From positions 124,001 to 188,000 of the forward strand of contig DATATI010000029.1 of assembly GCA_036268875.1 (NCBI GenBank): DNA of 64,000 nt, given 5' to 3'. Below the pieces are notes generated by a model. That model was not told the origin of the DNA. It saw only the letters and a list, made by a program, of their open reading frames with translations, and did no database searches. Below are positions 1,902 through 27,969 of this stretch, piece after piece. Origin of the DNA: Polyangia bacterium (lineage in GTDB: Bacteria > Myxococcota_A > Polyangia > Fen-1088). How positions within the stretch are numbered: the first letter of the stretch is position 1; each line of letters starts with the position of its first letter. Both the position numbers and the translations under genes were made by a program.

Positions 1902-2501
1902 GTGATCACCGATCCGCTCCCCCGTCAGGTCAGCAAGCGGGACGCGCACCAGCGCAGTGATCGCCTCGTCAACTTGCCGTTGCCGCCTGGCCGAGAGCTC
2001 CAGGCGGCAACCCAAGCCTTGGCCGATGCGATGGCGGATGGGCAACTCCGTCCCGTCCGTGCCTCGTGTGCCGGCGTGCTGGCGATTCTGGCGCGCTTTT
2101 ATACCGTGGAGGTGCCCGACGTTCGCGTGCTGGGCGTGCGCCCGCATGTGGTCACCCGCGGCGTGTGCACGTACCAGTTGTTCGGCGACTACACGCCTTC
2201 CACGCAGCGAATCCGAGTCTGGATGCGCACCGCCATTCGCGAGCAGGTGTCCAGTCCCAAAGCGCTGCTGAACACTTTGCTACATGAGTTTTGCCACCAC
2301 CTGGACGCCACCCGGTTTGCATGGCCAGACAGCCCGCACACCCGCGGTTTCTATTCGCGCATCGATCACTTGTACCACCTGGCTCTGGCGACGCCGCCCG
2401 AACGACGGCGGCCGTTGCAGTGGATCAAACGCGGCGCGGTTTGGAGCGTTGACTGGCGGCGCTCGACGAGCCGCCCAGCGGCCGCGCCTACGAACGAGTA
2501 A
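1902..2501 (+). CDS. Putative zinc metallopeptidase-like protein with HExxH motif
   Basis: 199 aa from a GTG start. Residues about 127-134 read LHEFCHHLD, which contains an HExxH zinc site (HEFCH) in a predicted helix. A further His-rich stretch follows (SPHTRGFYSRIDHLYH) and could supply the third metal ligand. There is no signal peptide or membrane segment, so it is probably cytoplasmic. The overall layout (basic N-terminus, central beta region, HExxH, basic tail) recalls SprT-like or minigluzincin-type small peptidases, but I cannot place it in a named family. Its 3' end overlaps the end of the convergent rhomboid gene by 14 bp. Confidence 0.65.
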   Translation: MITDPLPRQVSKRDAHQRSDRLVNLPLPPGRELQAATQALADAMADGQLRPVRASCAGVLAILARFYTVEVPDVRVLGVRPHVVTRGVCTYQLFGDYTPSTQRIRVWMRTAIREQVSSPKALLNTLLHEFCHHLDATRFAWPDSPHTRGFYSRIDHLYHLALATPPERRRPLQWIKRGAVWSVDWRRSTSRPAAAPTNE

Positions 2502-3378
2502 ACGCCAGTGCCCACGCTGTCGCGACGGCGCCCAGCGCCAGCAAAGCGCCAACGATTTGCCCCAACGCCGCAAGCCGGCGTTGCACCAGCACCGCCGTCG
2601 CAACCCCGGCCAGCGCGCCGATGCCGAGGCCAAATAAATGCGCCAGAACGTCCGCGTGTTCGCCGACGCCCAGCATGGCGAACAGCGCCAGGCCGGCGCC
2701 GAGGGGCAGCCACGCCCGACGCTTGAGCGGCCCCAGCCGCCAACGCCGGATGAGTTGCAGTCCGGCCAGAAGCCCCAACGCCGCGAACGTCGCCGTCGAG
2801 GCGCCGACGGAATAGTGGCCCGGACCATGAACCGCCGCCGTCAATAGATTGGCCGCGCCGGCAGCCAGCACCATCAGCGCGGCAGCCACGCCGGACCCGA
2901 GCCAGCGACCGGCGGCGCCCACGAAGATCACGCAGGCGATCAGATTACCGGTTAAGTGCAATAGATCGGCGTGCAAGGTGAGGGCGGTGACCGCCCGCCA
3001 CCATTGCCCGCCCAGGATCTCCTGCGACACCGCGCTGCCGTGAGCGAACCATGACGTCGGCTGGGCGACGTCGCGCGGGCCAGTCAATCCATAGAAACCC
3101 GCCAGCAGTACAGCGCTGACGATCCCCAGGTGGCTGGGGCGTGAATCGGGCGGCGCGCCTTCGACGGGAAGGGCCGCCGCCTCCCGGTCATACCCGTCGA
3201 GCGCAGCGCGCGCGGGGCCCTCGTCGATGGCGGCGACCATCACCGCCCACCCGGTCTCGGCGCGGACCAGGCTGTAGTCGATCCCGGCCGCCGCCAGAAC
3301 CACCGCCCAATCGCCGGCGCGCGTGCCGCTGTCCGTGGCTCGAACCAACGCCTCAGCCGCCCGTTCGGCGTCGCTCAT
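2488..3378 (-). CDS. Rhomboid family intramembrane serine protease
   Basis: 296 aa. I chose the ATG at 3378 because GGAGG lies just upstream; the longer frame to 3633 has a non-coding-looking N-terminus and runs into an AT-rich promoter. Residues 1-75 form a soluble domain resembling a DUF2007-type fold (WAVVLAAAGIDYSLVRAETG). Six or seven hydrophobic helices follow. Rhomboid hallmarks are HLTGNL (TM2 His and Asn), the serine loop GASTATFA and the TM6 histidine in HLFGLGIGAL. The serine motif is GxST rather than the usual GxSG, a variant I think still compatible with activity. Role: cleavage of membrane proteins within the inner membrane; substrate unknown. Confidence 0.85.
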   Translation of the reverse strand: MSDAERAAEALVRATDSGTRAGDWAVVLAAAGIDYSLVRAETGWAVMVAAIDEGPARAALDGYDREAAALPVEGAPPDSRPSHLGIVSAVLLAGFYGLTGPRDVAQPTSWFAHGSAVSQEILGGQWWRAVTALTLHADLLHLTGNLIACVIFVGAAGRWLGSGVAAALMVLAAGAANLLTAAVHGPGHYSVGASTATFAALGLLAGLQLIRRWRLGPLKRRAWLPLGAGLALFAMLGVGEHADVLAHLFGLGIGALAGVATAVLVQRRLAALGQIVGALLALGAVATAWALAFTRS

Positions 3379-3494
3379 GACCTCCAAGAGTAACCCGTTC
3401 GCCAGTCGGCCGCCGCCCCCTCCTGTTGCTTTCCGCGCATCGAGTGTTGGCTGGCAGGCATCAGGCGCACCTCGACGGAGCCTGTGGGATCGAC

Positions 3495-3617
3495 TCAAGT
3501 AATTGATTGAATTTATTGTTAAATTACAAATTATCTGTTTTCTTGGTAATCTAGCATACGCATTGCAACTGCCAGGAATCATCGTTGCCCATGACCTTCC
3601 AACAGGGAGAAAACCAG
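3495..3617 (+). promoter_or_regulatory. AT-rich promoter with a 16-bp palindrome upstream of the NGL-repeat lipoprotein
   Basis: About 60 bp from 3500 to 3560 are strongly AT-rich in an otherwise GC-rich window, as expected for a promoter. Positions 3510-3525 are a perfect inverted repeat, AATTTA-TTGT-TAAATT, which could be an operator. A ribosome site AGGGAGA (3604-3610) sits 7 nt before the ATG at 3618. Exact -35/-10 boxes are not clear. Confidence 0.55.
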
Positions 3618-4877
3618 ATGACCCGCAGTTCATTGTTTCATTCCAATACCCGCCGGCTGGCCCTGCTTTTGGCCTTGCCGCTTTTTGGCTGTGTTTCCGA
3701 AGTGCCCGCTGATAGCGAATCGGAGGAAGGCCAGCTGGCGACCGACAACGGTCTCATGTCCACCAACGGTCTGGGGACGATCAACGGCCTCGCCACCGGC
3801 AACGGCCTCGCCACCGGCAACGGCTTGTCCAGCACCAACGGACTGGCGACGGGGAACGGCCTCGCCACCGGCAACGGCCTGGCCACTGGCAACGGCCTCG
3901 CGACCGGCAATGGTTTGATGACGTTCGCCAGCGGGCGGACGTTCGTGAAATATCTGGCCAAGTGCGCGCTGACCAATGGACAGACGCTGATGAAGACGGT
4001 CACCGATAGCACTGGTACGACGACGAACTACGCGTTCCCCGGATCGATCGGCGTGGCGGCCAGCTGGCTGACCGGATCGTGCGACGCCGCCTGCCAGGAA
4101 CGGATGACGTCGTGTCTCATGTCCCTCACAAACAGCACCGGCCGCCACGTCGCAGTCGAGCTGGTCTCGGCGGCGGCGGGCCTGAACATGATCGGCCCTG
4201 GCGGCGACGACGTCGAGTTCCCGAACCAGGAAGGCGCCACCTTCGGCAACATGTTCGTCTCGCCACCGCAGATGTTCACCTGCACCGGCACCGAGTCGAC
4301 CAAGGCCGAGCAGGTCAAGCGCTTCTGCATCGACGGCACGTCGTGCGATCTCTTCCAGAAGGCCGGCAACTGCGCCAGCGCCTGCACCCAGACCTGCGTG
4401 AAGGGCCCGGGCGGCAAGAACGTCTGCTCGGCCAAGAGCTGCAAGGATCCGTCGGGCAAGGTGTGGTCGAACCCCATCACCGTCTTCCTCCACAACAAGA
4501 TGGAAGCCGCCAACAGCGACGCCGAGTCGGGCGTCACCACTTACGGCATCGCGCCGCCGGCCAACGGCATCACCGCCCTCGACAACGGTGACTGGGTGCA
4601 GATGAACGACGTGCAGTTCGGCACCGCCGCTGGCGCCATCAAGACCGCCGTCGCCACCACCGGGCTTGCCGCCGCCGGCAACTTCATCGACGTGCGCGTC
4701 GACTCGCTGACCGGCCCGCTGCTGGGCTCGATCGCCCTCAAGGCATACACCGGCACCTCGTCGCTGGATCAGACCGGCGCCCTGACCACCGCGGGCCTGA
4801 CTGGTTTTCACCCGGTCTTCTTCAAGTTCCGCGGCGGCTCGAACATGGGCATGGTCAGCTACCTCGAGCTCAAGTAA
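3618..4877 (+). CDS. Secreted lipoprotein with NGL hexapeptide repeats
   Basis: 419 aa. The signal peptide ends in a lipobox (LALPLFGC), so Cys26 should be lipidated. Mature residues about 44-100 carry ten NGL triplets spaced exactly six residues apart (18-nt DNA period, 3747-3917), mostly NGLATG. The remainder (about 320 aa) is a Cys-containing extracellular-type domain with no recognised enzyme motif; several Cys pairs (SCDAAC, CASACTQTC) suggest disulphides. NGL-repeat N-termini occur in myxobacterial surface proteins of unknown function, as far as I recall. The gene stands alone, with its own AT-rich promoter and two strong terminator hairpins. Confidence 0.85.
   Translation: MTRSSLFHSNTRRLALLLALPLFGCVSEVPADSESEEGQLATDNGLMSTNGLGTINGLATGNGLATGNGLSSTNGLATGNGLATGNGLATGNGLATGNGLMTFASGRTFVKYLAKCALTNGQTLMKTVTDSTGTTTNYAFPGSIGVAASWLTGSCDAACQERMTSCLMSLTNSTGRHVAVELVSAAAGLNMIGPGGDDVEFPNQEGATFGNMFVSPPQMFTCTGTESTKAEQVKRFCIDGTSCDLFQKAGNCASACTQTCVKGPGGKNVCSAKSCKDPSGKVWSNPITVFLHNKMEAANSDAESGVTTYGIAPPANGITALDNGDWVQMNDVQFGTAAGAIKTAVATTGLAAAGNFIDVRVDSLTGPLLGSIALKAYTGTSSLDQTGALTTAGLTGFHPVFFKFRGGSNMGMVSYLELK
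3747..3917 (+). repeat. 18-bp coding tandem repeat (NGLxxx, ten NGL units)
   Basis: Ten AAC/AAT-GGN-CTN/TTG triplets fall every 18 nt between 3747 and 3917. The central copies are nearly identical at DNA level (ggcctcgccaccggcaac), while the outer copies diverge (ATGTCC, GGGACG and TCCAGC spacers). This suggests recent copy-number change inside an older repeat array. Confidence 0.9.
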
Positions 4878-9592: not shown

Positions 9593-11191
9593 ATGGCATA
9601 CACTTTAGCAAGGAAGGCGGTCTTTGGGATCGCAGCGCTGCTGACGGCGCTGGGGCTTTCTGGCGGAACGGCGCACGCGCAGGCCGAACCCAAACTATTC
9701 CAGCTTGAACTTGGGGCAATGGGCGGCGCCCATTTCTTTGCTAACGATCTCGAGCTCGGCGTCGCCGACGATCCCAGTCTGCCGTCGCCCAAGTCCTCTG
9801 GCCTTTTCGGCCTACGCCTGGGCGTGACGCTGCACCCGATGATCTCGCTGGAAGCGGAGAGCGTCGGCATCCCCAGCGCCGACAACCAACACGATTACTC
9901 GCTGTTCATCCTCGGCTGGCGCGCCCACGTGCTGGTGAATCTGATGCAGGGACGGATCCTGAACGGCAAGCTGACGCCGTTCGTGCTGGCCGGGATGGGC
10001 GCCTTGAGTGTCGTGAAGACCGAAGGCACCGCGTACAACGAAATCAAAAAAGACACCGACCCCGCGTACCACGTCGGTGTCGGCTTCCGCTATCGCCTGA
10101 CGTCGCTGCTGGCGGTCCGCCTGGACGGCCGCGTGCTGGCCGTGCCGAACACCAAATCGGGCGGTTTTTCCCCCGACTTTGAGGTGATGGCCGGTCTGTC
10201 GGCGTTCCTCGGCGGCAAGCCCTTCGGTCCGCCGCCGGCGCCGCCGCCGCCACCGGTTCCGCCGCCGCCACCGGCGGTCGTGGACAGCGACAACGACGGT
10301 ATTCCGGACAACGTGGACAAGTGCCCGAACGAGCCCGAAGACAAAGACGGCTTCCAGGACGAAGACGGCTGCCCCGATCCCGACAACGACAACGACGGCG
10401 TCGCCGACGTCAAGGACAAGTGCCCGAACGAAGCCGAAGACAAAGATGGCTTCCAGGATGAAGACGGCTGCCCCGATCCGGACAATGACAACGACGGCAT
10501 CCCCGACGCCAAGGACAAGTGCCCGAACGAGCCCGAGACCAAGAACGGGTACCAGGACGAAGACGGCTGCCCCGACGAGGTCCCGGCCGCAGTGGCCAAG
10601 TTCACCGGCGTCATCAAGGGCATCAACTTCAAGCGCAACTCGGCGGACATCTCGCCGTCGTCTTTCCCGCTGCTGAAGAAGGCCGTGCAGGTGATGAAGG
10701 ATTACCCGACGATCATCATCGAGATCTCCGGGCACACTTCGGACGAAGGCAAGCGCGACTTCAACATGAAGCTGTCCAAAGAGCGCGCCGACTCGGTGAA
10801 GGCGTACCTGGTTTCGGCCGGCATCGCCGACAACCGCATCCTCACCGTCGGTTACGGTCCGGACAAGCCCATCGCCGACAACAAGACAAAAGCCGGCAAG
10901 GGGAAAAACCGTCGCATCGAGTTCCGCCTGGTTCCGCAAGGCGGAGAGTCCGCGGCAGCCGACGCGCCAGCGCCGGCACCGATGCCGGCGGCGATGTCCG
11001 AGCCAGCACCGCCACCAGCGCCCACGCCGTCGAGCGATCCGCTGGCGAAATCAATCAAGGCGAAAGCGAAAGGGAAGGCGAAGAAGGCACCGGCCGGCGA
11101 CGCTACGTCTGCTCCCGAGGTGACCAAGAAGCGCGGCCTCACACCCGCCGCGCCCAGCGCCGACAAAGACGCCGACGCCGCCAAGAAGTAG
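9593..11191 (+). CDS. OmpA-family outer-membrane protein with TSP3 calcium repeats
   Basis: 532 aa. The signal peptide ends at AHAQAEP. Residues about 30-215 form an N-terminal beta-barrel. A Pro-rich hinge follows (PPPAPPPPPVPPPPPAVV). Residues about 235-335 contain three thrombospondin type-3 repeats (DSDNDGIPDNVDKCPNEPED and two near-identical copies), which bind calcium. The OmpA C-terminal peptidoglycan-binding domain is residues about 345-460 (ISGHTSDEGKRDFNMKLSKE ... NRRIEFRLVPQG). A Pro/Ala/Lys-rich tail of about 65 aa ends the protein. It likely tethers the outer membrane to peptidoglycan. The ATG at 9593 is preferred over an upstream TTG because the signal peptide starts there. Confidence 0.93.
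   Translation: MAYTLARKAVFGIAALLTALGLSGGTAHAQAEPKLFQLELGAMGGAHFFANDLELGVADDPSLPSPKSSGLFGLRLGVTLHPMISLEAESVGIPSADNQHDYSLFILGWRAHVLVNLMQGRILNGKLTPFVLAGMGALSVVKTEGTAYNEIKKDTDPAYHVGVGFRYRLTSLLAVRLDGRVLAVPNTKSGGFSPDFEVMAGLSAFLGGKPFGPPPAPPPPPVPPPPPAVVDSDNDGIPDNVDKCPNEPEDKDGFQDEDGCPDPDNDNDGVADVKDKCPNEAEDKDGFQDEDGCPDPDNDNDGIPDAKDKCPNEPETKNGYQDEDGCPDEVPAAVAKFTGVIKGINFKRNSADISPSSFPLLKKAVQVMKDYPTIIIEISGHTSDEGKRDFNMKLSKERADSVKAYLVSAGIADNRILTVGYGPDKPIADNKTKAGKGKNRRIEFRLVPQGGESAAADAPAPAPMPAAMSEPAPPPAPTPSSDPLAKSIKAKAKGKAKKAPAGDATSAPEVTKKRGLTPAAPSADKDADAAKK
10291..10575 (+). repeat. TSP3 calcium-binding coding repeats
   Basis: Three tandem copies of a unit of about 105 nt encode DxDxDGxxDxxDxCPNxxEDKDGFQDEDGC-type loops. 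They differ mainly by synonymous changes and are conserved as protein repeats. Confidence 0.85.
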
Positions 11192-26341: not shown

Positions 26342-27969
26342 GGAATCGCGATTTGCGGCACGCAGCGGCCCGCCACGCAGGCGTCGCCGCCATCGCAGCA
26401 GGTACAGCCGCAGGCGAACTGATCGATCTCGCACTGGTGGGCCAGGCAGGTGCCGTCGACGCAGAGCTGACCGCAGCCGCAGGCTGGCGAACACGGGCGC
26501 GCCGAGCACTGACCGGCCACGCACGTCGATCCGCTGCCGCAGCTGCAAGAGTTGCCGCAGCCGTCGGTGCCGCCGCAGGTCGCATCAATCGGGCACTGCG
26601 GTCTGCAGCAGGCACCGTTGTACATCTTCGCGCCGGCGCCGCACGCGCAGGTGCCGCCGCAACCGTCGGACATCCCGCCCTTGCTGCCGTCCGCCGGACA
26701 CCTGGGCGCGCAGCACTGACCGCCGTAACATTTCTGACCGCTGGTGCAGCCGCACGTGCCGCCGCAACCGTCGCTGCCGCCGCAACTTCCGCCCACCGGA
26801 CACTGCGGTTTGCAGCACGCACCCAGGTACGACTTCGTTCCGCTGCCGCACGCGCAGGTGCCGCCACAACCATCGGACAATCCGCCTTTGCTGCCGTCCG
26901 CTGGACACTGGGGCACGCAGCACTGGCCGCCGTAACACTTCTGGCCGCTACCGGTGCAGCCGCACGTGCCGCCACACCCGTCACTGCCGCCGCAGCTTCC
27001 GTTCGCCGGACACTGCGGTCTGCAGCAGGCGCCGTTGTACAGCTTGGCGCCGCTGGCGCAGGCGCACGTCCCCTTGCAGCCGTCGGACATTCCGCCGCGA
27101 CTGCCGTCCGCGGGGCACGTCGGCGTGCACTGGCACTTTCCCTCGACGCAGTGACCGTTGGTCCCGCAGCCACCCGCGCACGAGCAGGTGTCGATGCAGG
27201 TGCCGCCGTTGCACACGCTGCCCGGTGCGCACGTCACCGTCGCGCACGGATCATCCAGGCAGTGGCCACCCGAACACGTCTGGTCCGTCGAGCACTTCAC
27301 GTTCGCGCAAGCGCTGGGCGCGGCGCAGGTGAGGGTGCAGGCCGTTCCCGCCGGGCACTGCGCATCGCAAGCGGCAAGGTCCACGCACTTGCCGGTGCTG
27401 GCGTCGCAGTGCTTGCCGGCCGCGCAGGTGACCCCGGCGCACGGGATGGCGAAGCAACCGGCGACGCAGGCGCCGTCGACGCAGGTCTGACCGTCGCTGC
27501 AGGTGACCCCAGCGCAGCGATCAACCACCGCCACGCACGCCGCCCGGCACGCCTGACCGGCGGCGCAGGCGCTGCCCGTCGCGCAGGGATCGCTCTGGCA
27601 GATGCCGCCGAGACAGATCTGACCGGCGGCGCAAACAGAAGTGGTCGCGCACGACTTCGGCCCCATGTCCACGTCGACCGGTGGCGGTGCCGCATCGCTG
27701 GGTGGGATGAAGCTGCCGCCGCTGCCGTTCTGGTTCTGATCGACGGCTGCGTCGGCCTTGCCGCGAGAGCCGCCGCTGCCCGACGAGAACACCGGATCGC
27801 TGTCCGAAATTCGTCCGGTTAACCCGCAACCGACGTTCGACGCCATGATGAGCGTCGCAAACAACACTGTTGCCCCGCGGGCAACGGGCGACGGCGCGAC
27901 AGCCGATCGAAACGTCGGCGAAACAGCGCAGAAAGGGCGGCGAGAACGGCGCGAGGATGACAGCTTCAT
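26338..27969 (-). CDS. Secreted Cys-rich protein with six alternating repeats
   Basis: 543 aa from ATG 27969. A long basic N-terminus and hydrophobic segment end in NVGC, a weak lipobox. A Ser/Gly tether follows, then about nine Cys pairs of the CxxGQxCxxGxC style (residues 100-290). Six tandem repeats of about 34 aa alternate in two types. Type A is CPADGSxGGxSDGCGGTCAC...YxGAC. Type B is CPxxGSCGGSDGCGGTCGC...CYGGQC. The order is A-B-A-B-A-B (nt about 26505-27135). A Cys-rich end domain closes the protein (PACGCGQLCVDGTC). All cysteines look paired, as expected for an extracellular adhesin or matrix protein. Its stop overlaps the thioesterase stop by 4 bp (TTAA). Confidence 0.88.
   Translation of the reverse strand: MKLSSSRRSRRPFCAVSPTFRSAVAPSPVARGATVLFATLIMASNVGCGLTGRISDSDPVFSSGSGGSRGKADAAVDQNQNGSGGSFIPPSDAAPPPVDVDMGPKSCATTSVCAAGQICLGGICQSDPCATGSACAAGQACRAACVAVVDRCAGVTCSDGQTCVDGACVAGCFAIPCAGVTCAAGKHCDASTGKCVDLAACDAQCPAGTACTLTCAAPSACANVKCSTDQTCSGGHCLDDPCATVTCAPGSVCNGGTCIDTCSCAGGCGTNGHCVEGKCQCTPTCPADGSRGGMSDGCKGTCACASGAKLYNGACCRPQCPANGSCGGSDGCGGTCGCTGSGQKCYGGQCCVPQCPADGSKGGLSDGCGGTCACGSGTKSYLGACCKPQCPVGGSCGGSDGCGGTCGCTSGQKCYGGQCCAPRCPADGSKGGMSDGCGGTCACGAGAKMYNGACCRPQCPIDATCGGTDGCGNSCSCGSGSTCVAGQCSARPCSPACGCGQLCVDGTCLAHQCEIDQFACGCTCCDGGDACVAGRCVPQIAIP
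26505..27135 (-). repeat. ABABAB Cys-knot coding repeat array
   Basis: Six units of about 102-105 nt alternate between two sequence types, so the effective duplicated unit is about 205 nt. The A units resemble each other more than the neighbouring B units, and the reverse also holds. Confidence 0.85.

What the first reader, a model, noticed from the sequence alone, without database searches (positions are those of the whole stretch)
3618..4877. Lipoprotein with ten NGL hexapeptide repeats
NGL occurs ten times at an exact six-residue period immediately after the lipidated Cys, as a likely beta-solenoid or extended stalk. The central DNA copies are nearly identical, a sign of ongoing copy-number change. 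The role of NGL proteins is, to my knowledge, undescribed.
Basis: seen in the sequence. Interest (0 to 1): 0.55.

Follow-up and report, generated by a model that had tools for sequence, protein, structure and literature searches.

The report
Sugar-binding surface lipoproteins on repeat stalks
The repeat is real and belongs to a previously unnamed family of lipid-anchored, probably sugar-binding surface proteins of myxobacterial relatives, in which a short asparagine-based repeat is kept uniform by selection and many family genes share one promoter design.

Summary
In detail: a 419-aa lipoprotein (3618-4877, +) has NGL ten times at exact six-residue spacing (residues 44-100), though after an 18-residue acidic spacer, not directly after the Cys. 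It is one of 10 paralogs in this 6.15 Mb Myxococcota-type genome; C-termini vary (CBM6, ricin-type, LamG, none). Relatives carry five-residue N-x-L/I arrays instead; the period changes once on the core tree. Within arrays pN<pS in 56 of 58. In the window gene silent sites look randomised (pS 0.54), so the uniform unit is kept by protein-level selection rather than recent slippage. AlphaFold2 gives no solenoid. Unexpectedly, genes of the six-residue clade share GG-N10-GC (sigma54-type) promoters and an upstream GTTG-N9-CAAC dyad (13 of 22 genes; 0.09 sites expected) at helically phased spacing; the window gene has a promoter variant but only loose dyads. Best reading: surface-displayed glycan-binding lipoproteins on a selected stalk, expressed as a regulon. 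New variant of a known kind.

The parts
3425..3462 (+). Two loose matches to the upstream dyad (GTTG-N9-CATC at 3425-3441 and 3446-3462); weak version of the GTTG-N9-CAAC element of other family genes
   Evidence: neither is an exact GTTG-N9-CAAC. By hand, their spacing to the promoter (127 and 106) does not fit the phase of the other genes
3552..3567 (+). Promoter-like element TAGCATACGCATTGCA (AG-N10-GC, sigma54-like -24/-12 variant) shared with family genes
   Evidence: the class-2 pattern, built from six of these genes, occurs 8 times in 568,685 bp of fetched loci, each time 5' of a family gene
3604..3609 (+). Ribosome-binding-like AGGGAG shortly before the ATG
   Evidence: sequence
3618..4877 (+). 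Coding sequence, 419 aa
3618..3692 (+). Lipoprotein signal peptide (1-24) and Cys25 of lipobox LFGC
   Evidence: C25 nearly invariant in 21 aligned relatives
3693..3746 (+). Acidic spacer, residues 26-43
   Evidence: over 55 family spacers D+E is 25%, K+R 1.4%, +2 residue never Asp
3747..3917 (+). Array of ten NGL units, residues 44-100 (the last unit runs on into the core)
3918..4493 (+). Conserved Cys-containing core domain, residues 101-292
   Evidence: alignment A2; 10 matches in the own genome; no Pfam, NCBIfam or PDB sequence match; AF2 pLDDT mostly 64-93 with low loops
4503..4844 (+). CBM6 carbohydrate-binding module, residues 296-409
   Evidence: PF03422, 51.9 bits against cut-off 28.9; 2v4v phmmer E 6.5e-12; Foldseek and VIA-align to CBM6 structures, Z up to 12.8

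Best explanation
The gene encodes an outer-membrane, probably surface-exposed lipoprotein that binds a glycan through its C-terminal CBM6 domain. The order is lipid-anchored Cys, acidic spacer, uncharged N-x-L repeat stalk, Cys-containing core domain, interchangeable sugar-binding module. The repeat holds the core and lectin away from the membrane; its unit is kept uniform by selection, which suggests a sequence-specific role (a regular stalk, or sites that a partner or export factor reads) rather than a mere filler. In this lineage the six-residue-repeat genes form a set expressed from sigma54-type promoters with a common upstream activator dyad, so cells would display a panel of glycan receptors together. 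Shown by sequence: anatomy, paralogy, selection pattern, shared promoter and dyad in the clade. Inferred: surface exposure, sugar binding, stalk function, sigma54 dependence, and that the window gene is under the same control.
For: Lipobox and array. CBM6 above the curated cut-off, with matching structures. 10 core paralogs in G000; C-termini CBM6, ricin-type, LamG or none; over 113 of 115 core proteins most Pfam matches are sugar-binding domains: RicinB 11, CBM6 4, CBM35 2, LamG 1, CBM13-like 1. Acidic spacer and uncharged array, no Asp at +2 in 55. pN<pS in 56 of 58 arrays; within-array identity at variable positions 0.49 (hexa) and 0.59 (penta) against 0.22 and 0.13 between arrays, about unchanged when only arrays with high pS are kept. 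Period changes once on the 84-row core tree. Promoter element GGNNNNNTTACTGCT: 7 sites in 6.15 Mb, 5 of them 5' of family genes. GTTG-N9-CAAC in 13 of 22 hexa genes against 0.09 sites expected, 0 of 31 penta genes; dyad-promoter spacing phased at about 10.9 bp, R 0.82, reached by 0.0002 of random sets. One rpoN in the genome.
Against: No experiment. Of the three CBM6 cleft residues that I recall (Tyr34/Trp92/Asn120 of CtCBM6), an aromatic and the Asn seem kept but the Trp92 equivalent is lost. Ricin or CBM domains are found in a minority of core proteins (most of the 113 have no Pfam match). AF2 does not model the array. The window gene has only loose dyads, out of phase by hand. The sigma54 consensus score does not separate hexa genes from the other core genes (p 0.11), only forward from reverse strand (p 1e-4), and is not significant for several single genes (C21 p 0.69, C72 0.67, window 0.14). 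Polyangium orthologs lack the dyad. The promoter patterns were built from these very genes.
Confidence: 0.55

Rival explanations
1. The array is a generic disordered tether: any low-complexity, uncharged linker of 40-60 residues would do, and the NGL pattern is incidental.
For: AF2 leaves the array unstructured; short arrays exist (3 NGL in L020, 2-3 in L071) and some family members have none.
Against: Asn and Leu/Ile are kept at fixed phase over many genes (third position L/I/M/F/V in nearly all units); in about half of the arrays silent sites are strongly diverged while amino acids stay uniform.
Confidence: 0.3
2. The array folds as a beta-solenoid or amyloid-like ladder with Asn stacked every turn.
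For: Strict period, conserved Asn and Leu/Ile, selection for self-similarity, two periods (5 and 6) known from other solenoids (recalled).
Against: AF2 pLDDT block means 28-48 in the window protein and 41-52 in a 17-repeat protein, no strands assigned in the arrays; no Pfam hexapeptide or pentapeptide model matches.
Confidence: 0.15
3. The array or the acidic spacer is a recognition signal for export to the cell surface or for a partner protein, present in many copies for avidity.
For: The array lies between Cys and core in nearly all array-bearing members; stand-alone secreted NGL proteins without core exist (L030 158 aa, L021 90 aa, a truncated one in G001), one directly upstream of an array-less core+CBM6 paralog; acidic spacers.
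Against: No partner or export factor identified; unit sequence differs among paralogs in one genome.
Confidence: 0.3
4. The array is a neutral product of recent replication slippage with no function.
For: Units 3, 4 and 7 identical in DNA; a 72-bp duplication at 89% matches; copy number differs among Polyangium orthologs.
Against: pS 0.54 and silent codon identity at the random level in the window array; same architecture across genera.
Confidence: 0.04

Closest known systems
CBM6 carbohydrate-binding modules (Pfam PF03422; PDB 2v4v, 1gmm/1uxx, 1w9s)
   Same: C-terminal 114 residues match by sequence and fold
   Different: Most of those entries are modules of glycosidases; here the module sits on a lipoprotein with an unnamed core and no recognised catalytic domain
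Surface lipoproteins of Gram-negative bacteria (review PMC7857515, passages seen)
   Same: Lipid-anchored ligand-binding proteins; some, such as NHBA, have a disordered N-terminal region before a folded domain
   Different: Regular N-x-L array under selection for uniform units, large paralog family with swapped lectin modules, found here in myxobacterial genomes only; surface exposure untested
Pentapeptide-repeat proteins and left-handed beta-helix hexapeptide repeats
   Same: Five- or six-residue period with a conserved aliphatic residue
   Different: Asn two residues before the aliphatic one; no Pfam model for them matches; no solenoid predicted
Sigma54 / enhancer-binding-protein promoters
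   Same: GG-N10-GC element, upstream dyad 69-134 bp away at helical phase, rpoN present
   Different: Activator unknown; window gene has AG in place of GG; start codons often only about 15 nt after the -12 GC

Membership tests
CBM6 | Profile match above curated cut-off | tested here: met
   51.9 bits against 28.9
CBM6 | Beta-sandwich fold of CBM6 | tested here: met
   VIA-align Z 12.8 to 2v4v, rmsd 2.6 over 110 residues; model pLDDT in this domain only about 33-82
CBM6 | Ligand-binding cleft residues | tested here: inconclusive
   Trp at the Tyr34 position and Asn at the Asn120 position kept, Trp92 position lost (alignment read by eye; residue roles recalled)
Bacterial lipoprotein | Signal peptide with lipobox Cys | tested here: met
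   LFGC at 22-25; Cys nearly invariant
Surface-exposed lipoprotein | Located on the cell surface | not testable with these tools
   inferred from sugar-binding domain and acidic spacer
Pentapeptide or hexapeptide (LbH) repeat families | Match to the Pfam repeat models | tested here: not met
   none among families at E up to 10 for the window protein or at E up to 0.01 for 113 members
Beta-solenoid proteins | Solenoid fold | tested here: inconclusive
   AF2 low confidence, no strands in the arrays
Sigma54-dependent regulon (hexa clade) | GG-N10-GC promoter plus upstream activator site | tested here: met
   but the best-score test against other core genes is not significant (p 0.11), and sigma54 use itself is untested
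Sigma54-dependent regulon (window gene) | Same elements | tested here: inconclusive
   AG-N10-GC element present at 3552-3567, no exact dyad

The most novel reading that the evidence does not exclude
N-x-L/I arrays of period five or six are an unrecognised, sequence-specific module of myxobacterial surface lipoproteins, selected for self-similarity and not for one fixed unit, found also as free secreted repeats encoded beside an array-less partner, and in the six-residue clade switched on together by sigma54 and one dedicated activator as a glycan-receptor display programme.
Probability: 0.3. Interest if true: 0.75.

Novelty: new variant of a known kind. Interest (0 to 1): 0.5.

Why it matters
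It makes a family (array plus core) visible among proteins that Pfam and NCBIfam leave blank in myxobacterial genomes, and ties many scattered genes to one promoter design. The pattern of uniform units over randomised silent sites is a clean case for asking what selects a repeat for self-similarity. If the glycan-receptor reading is right, it is a testable system for how predatory or polymer-degrading soil bacteria present many sugar-binding proteins at once.

Tried and rejected
Recent slippage as sole cause: rejected by silent-site divergence. Beta-solenoid: not supported by two AF2 runs. The two sites outside the family with the class-1 promoter pattern (L177, L180) lie in or across ORFs that look coding and were set aside. 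Of the 13 dyad+promoter pattern matches, five are at family genes (C80 counted twice), eight are not; of those eight, two (ECF sigma L192, SpoIIE-type phosphatase L194) look like real promoters, one lies before a UvrA-like gene by eye (L191), and the others look incidental. Wider NGL arrays by DNA pattern: 14 of 377 phylum genomes; 5 belong to this family, the other 9 look unrelated or were not resolved. The first DNA pattern had the wrong spacing and found nothing, corrected. Literature searches gave no paper on the array or the family; of the papers listed I read only passages of PMC7857515.

Limits: 115 non-redundant core ORFs came from 187 matching ORFs in 175 loci, found with a profile made from family members, so the set is not a random sample; two with unknown residues were dropped for the Pfam scan (113 scanned) and 31 low-score or short ones for the tree (84 used). 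The phasing test uses 13 spacings that are not independent (two from one gene, paralogs included); it took the best-scoring sigma54-like site of each gene as found, and left out the L005 (G011b) and L064 spacings, whose best-scoring site was not the shared promoter, and the loose dyads of the window gene and G001a.

Full report
Observation. The ORF at 3618-4877 (+) encodes 419 aa with a lipobox (LFGC, Cys25) and ten NGL at residues 44 to 98 in steps of six; DNA 3747-3917. Between Cys and array lies an acidic 18-residue spacer. The finding is real and its coordinates are right.

What the protein is. Pfam gives one match, CBM6 at residues 296-409 (51.9 bits, cut-off 28.9); PDB sequence search agrees (2v4v, E 6.5e-12), as do Foldseek and VIA-align on the AF2 model (Z 12.8 to 2v4v). 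Residues 101-292 are a conserved Cys-containing domain (the 21-row full-length alignment has 14 invariant and 29 nearly invariant columns, array and lipobox positions included; core alignment A2) with no Pfam, NCBIfam or PDB sequence match. AF2 models most of it with pLDDT 64-93 but leaves the array at block means of 28-48.

The family. A profile of the core has 10 matches in the window's own 6.15 Mb genome. Eight of these ten have NGL hexa arrays, one (C72) has a penta NALTA array, and one (C63, 78.8-80 kb) has no array but follows a separate 90-aa ORF that is signal peptide plus NGL repeats plus a short tail. A second stand-alone protein of 158 aa with 17 NGL lies on C79 and shares that tail; a truncated one, with a signal peptide and no lipobox, lies in another genome (L257). 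Pfam C-termini of the paralogs: CBM6, ricin-type, LamG or none (C53 and C63a judged ricin-like by eye). Over the phylum, 22 of 377 genomes match the core, and four genomes of one genus group have 13 to 17 matches each. Named hits are Polyangium, Sorangium, Myxococcus, Archangium and MAGs labelled Myxococcota, Myxococcales, Myxococcaceae, Deltaproteobacteria or Proteobacteria (25 loci); that the window's genome is of this phylum is inferred from them.

The array as a family trait. Of 115 non-redundant core ORFs, 56 have four or more Asn at period 5 (31) or 6 (25); length five or more 53, against 2 of 5750 shuffles. Penta units include NALTx, NAIQP, NALNL, NSLAL, NRIAG, NRLAV, NGIGW. On the 84-row core tree, hexa and penta differ by a single change (quick tree with several weak forks). 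Arrays are nearly uncharged (D+E 1.6%, K+R 1.6% of 2112 residues), while 55 spacers are acidic (25% D+E, 1.4% K+R) and none has Asp at +2.

Selection. Between units of one array, pN is below pS in 56 of 58 arrays (two stand-alone proteins included; median 0.20 and 0.43). In the window array, synonymous codon identity is 0.49 against 0.47 expected. Some arrays, such as NALTS (L110) and NGLSQL (L074), have uniform amino acids and strongly mixed codons; others, such as L005 or L065, look recently duplicated. Positions that vary between genes are uniform within arrays (0.49 and 0.59 against 0.22 and 0.13), and this stays when only arrays with high pS are used. In five Polyangium-type orthologs with core identity 0.75-0.93, the unit has changed nearly as a block (NSG, SSG, GTG, HSG) and the unit number ranges from 6 to 10. 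So a homogenising process acts, and selection keeps units alike.

A shared promoter. Upstream regions of the paralogs share GG-N10-GC elements. The exact form GGNNNNNTTACTGCT occurs 7 times in the genome (control, pattern reversed: 13), 5 of them in front of family genes, the other two in or across coding ORFs. A second form, near CTRGCAY-N-C-N3-WTGCA, includes the window gene at 3552-3567 and occurs 8 times (7 distinct genes) in 568,685 bp of fetched loci, always 5' of family genes, though the pattern was made from six of them. A dyad GTTG-N9-CAAC (67 sites in the genome, control 33) lies upstream of 13 of 22 hexa genes against 0.09 sites expected, of 0 of 31 penta genes, and of 3 of 59 others, all three in the hexa clade with short arrays (tree). 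Thirteen dyad-to-promoter spacings are helically phased (R 0.82 near 10.9 bp; 0.0002 of random sets as high). The genome has one rpoN. Against it: the generic sigma54 score is not higher in hexa genes than in other core genes (p 0.11) although it is higher on the coding strand than on the reverse (p 1e-4), single-gene scores are often weak, the window gene has only loose dyads, and Polyangium genes lack the dyad. Two regulator genes, an ECF sigma factor and a SpoIIE-type phosphatase, also carry dyad plus promoter in this genome.

Interpretation. I commit to surface-displayed glycan-binding lipoproteins with a selected stalk (0.55 for the whole chain). What the sequence shows: anatomy, family, selection, shared promoter design in the clade. 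What is inferred: location, ligand, stalk role, activator, and control of the window gene. The solenoid idea is unsupported, the slippage idea is rejected for this gene, and a generic tether or an export/partner signal remain open.

Novelty. The lectin module is known; the core and the N-x-L arrays have no model in the libraries searched, and my literature searches found no description. I rate it a new variant of a known kind.

Noticed in passing
L192 and L194 (genome C20 and C29): An ECF sigma gene and a SpoIIE-type phosphatase gene carry the same dyad plus GG-N10-GC promoter design, with the start codon about 15 nt after the -12 GC.
   Followed up: partly
L021:5924-6196 (-), L030:5443-5919 (-), L257:1818-2144 (+): Stand-alone secreted NGL-repeat proteins without lipobox or core; the first two share a tail AAGIDPNQSL and CGGCAC-N5-TTGCT promoters close to the sigma54 consensus (the third is cut by a contig end).
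   Followed up: partly
L234, L235, L228: Other secreted-looking proteins of the phylum carry NGLIGT/NGLIGE/NGFVGE hexapeptide arrays at their C-terminus, outside the core family (L235's array weakly matches the Pfam collagen model).
   Followed up: partly
window 2491-3633 (-): A rhomboid protease gene (PF01694) is divergently transcribed from the NGL gene; whether it matters is unknown.
   Followed up: no
window 10283-10575 and 26554-27129: Other tandem repeats: three 99-bp units in an OmpA-family protein with TSP3 repeats, and 207-bp repeats further on.
   Followed up: no
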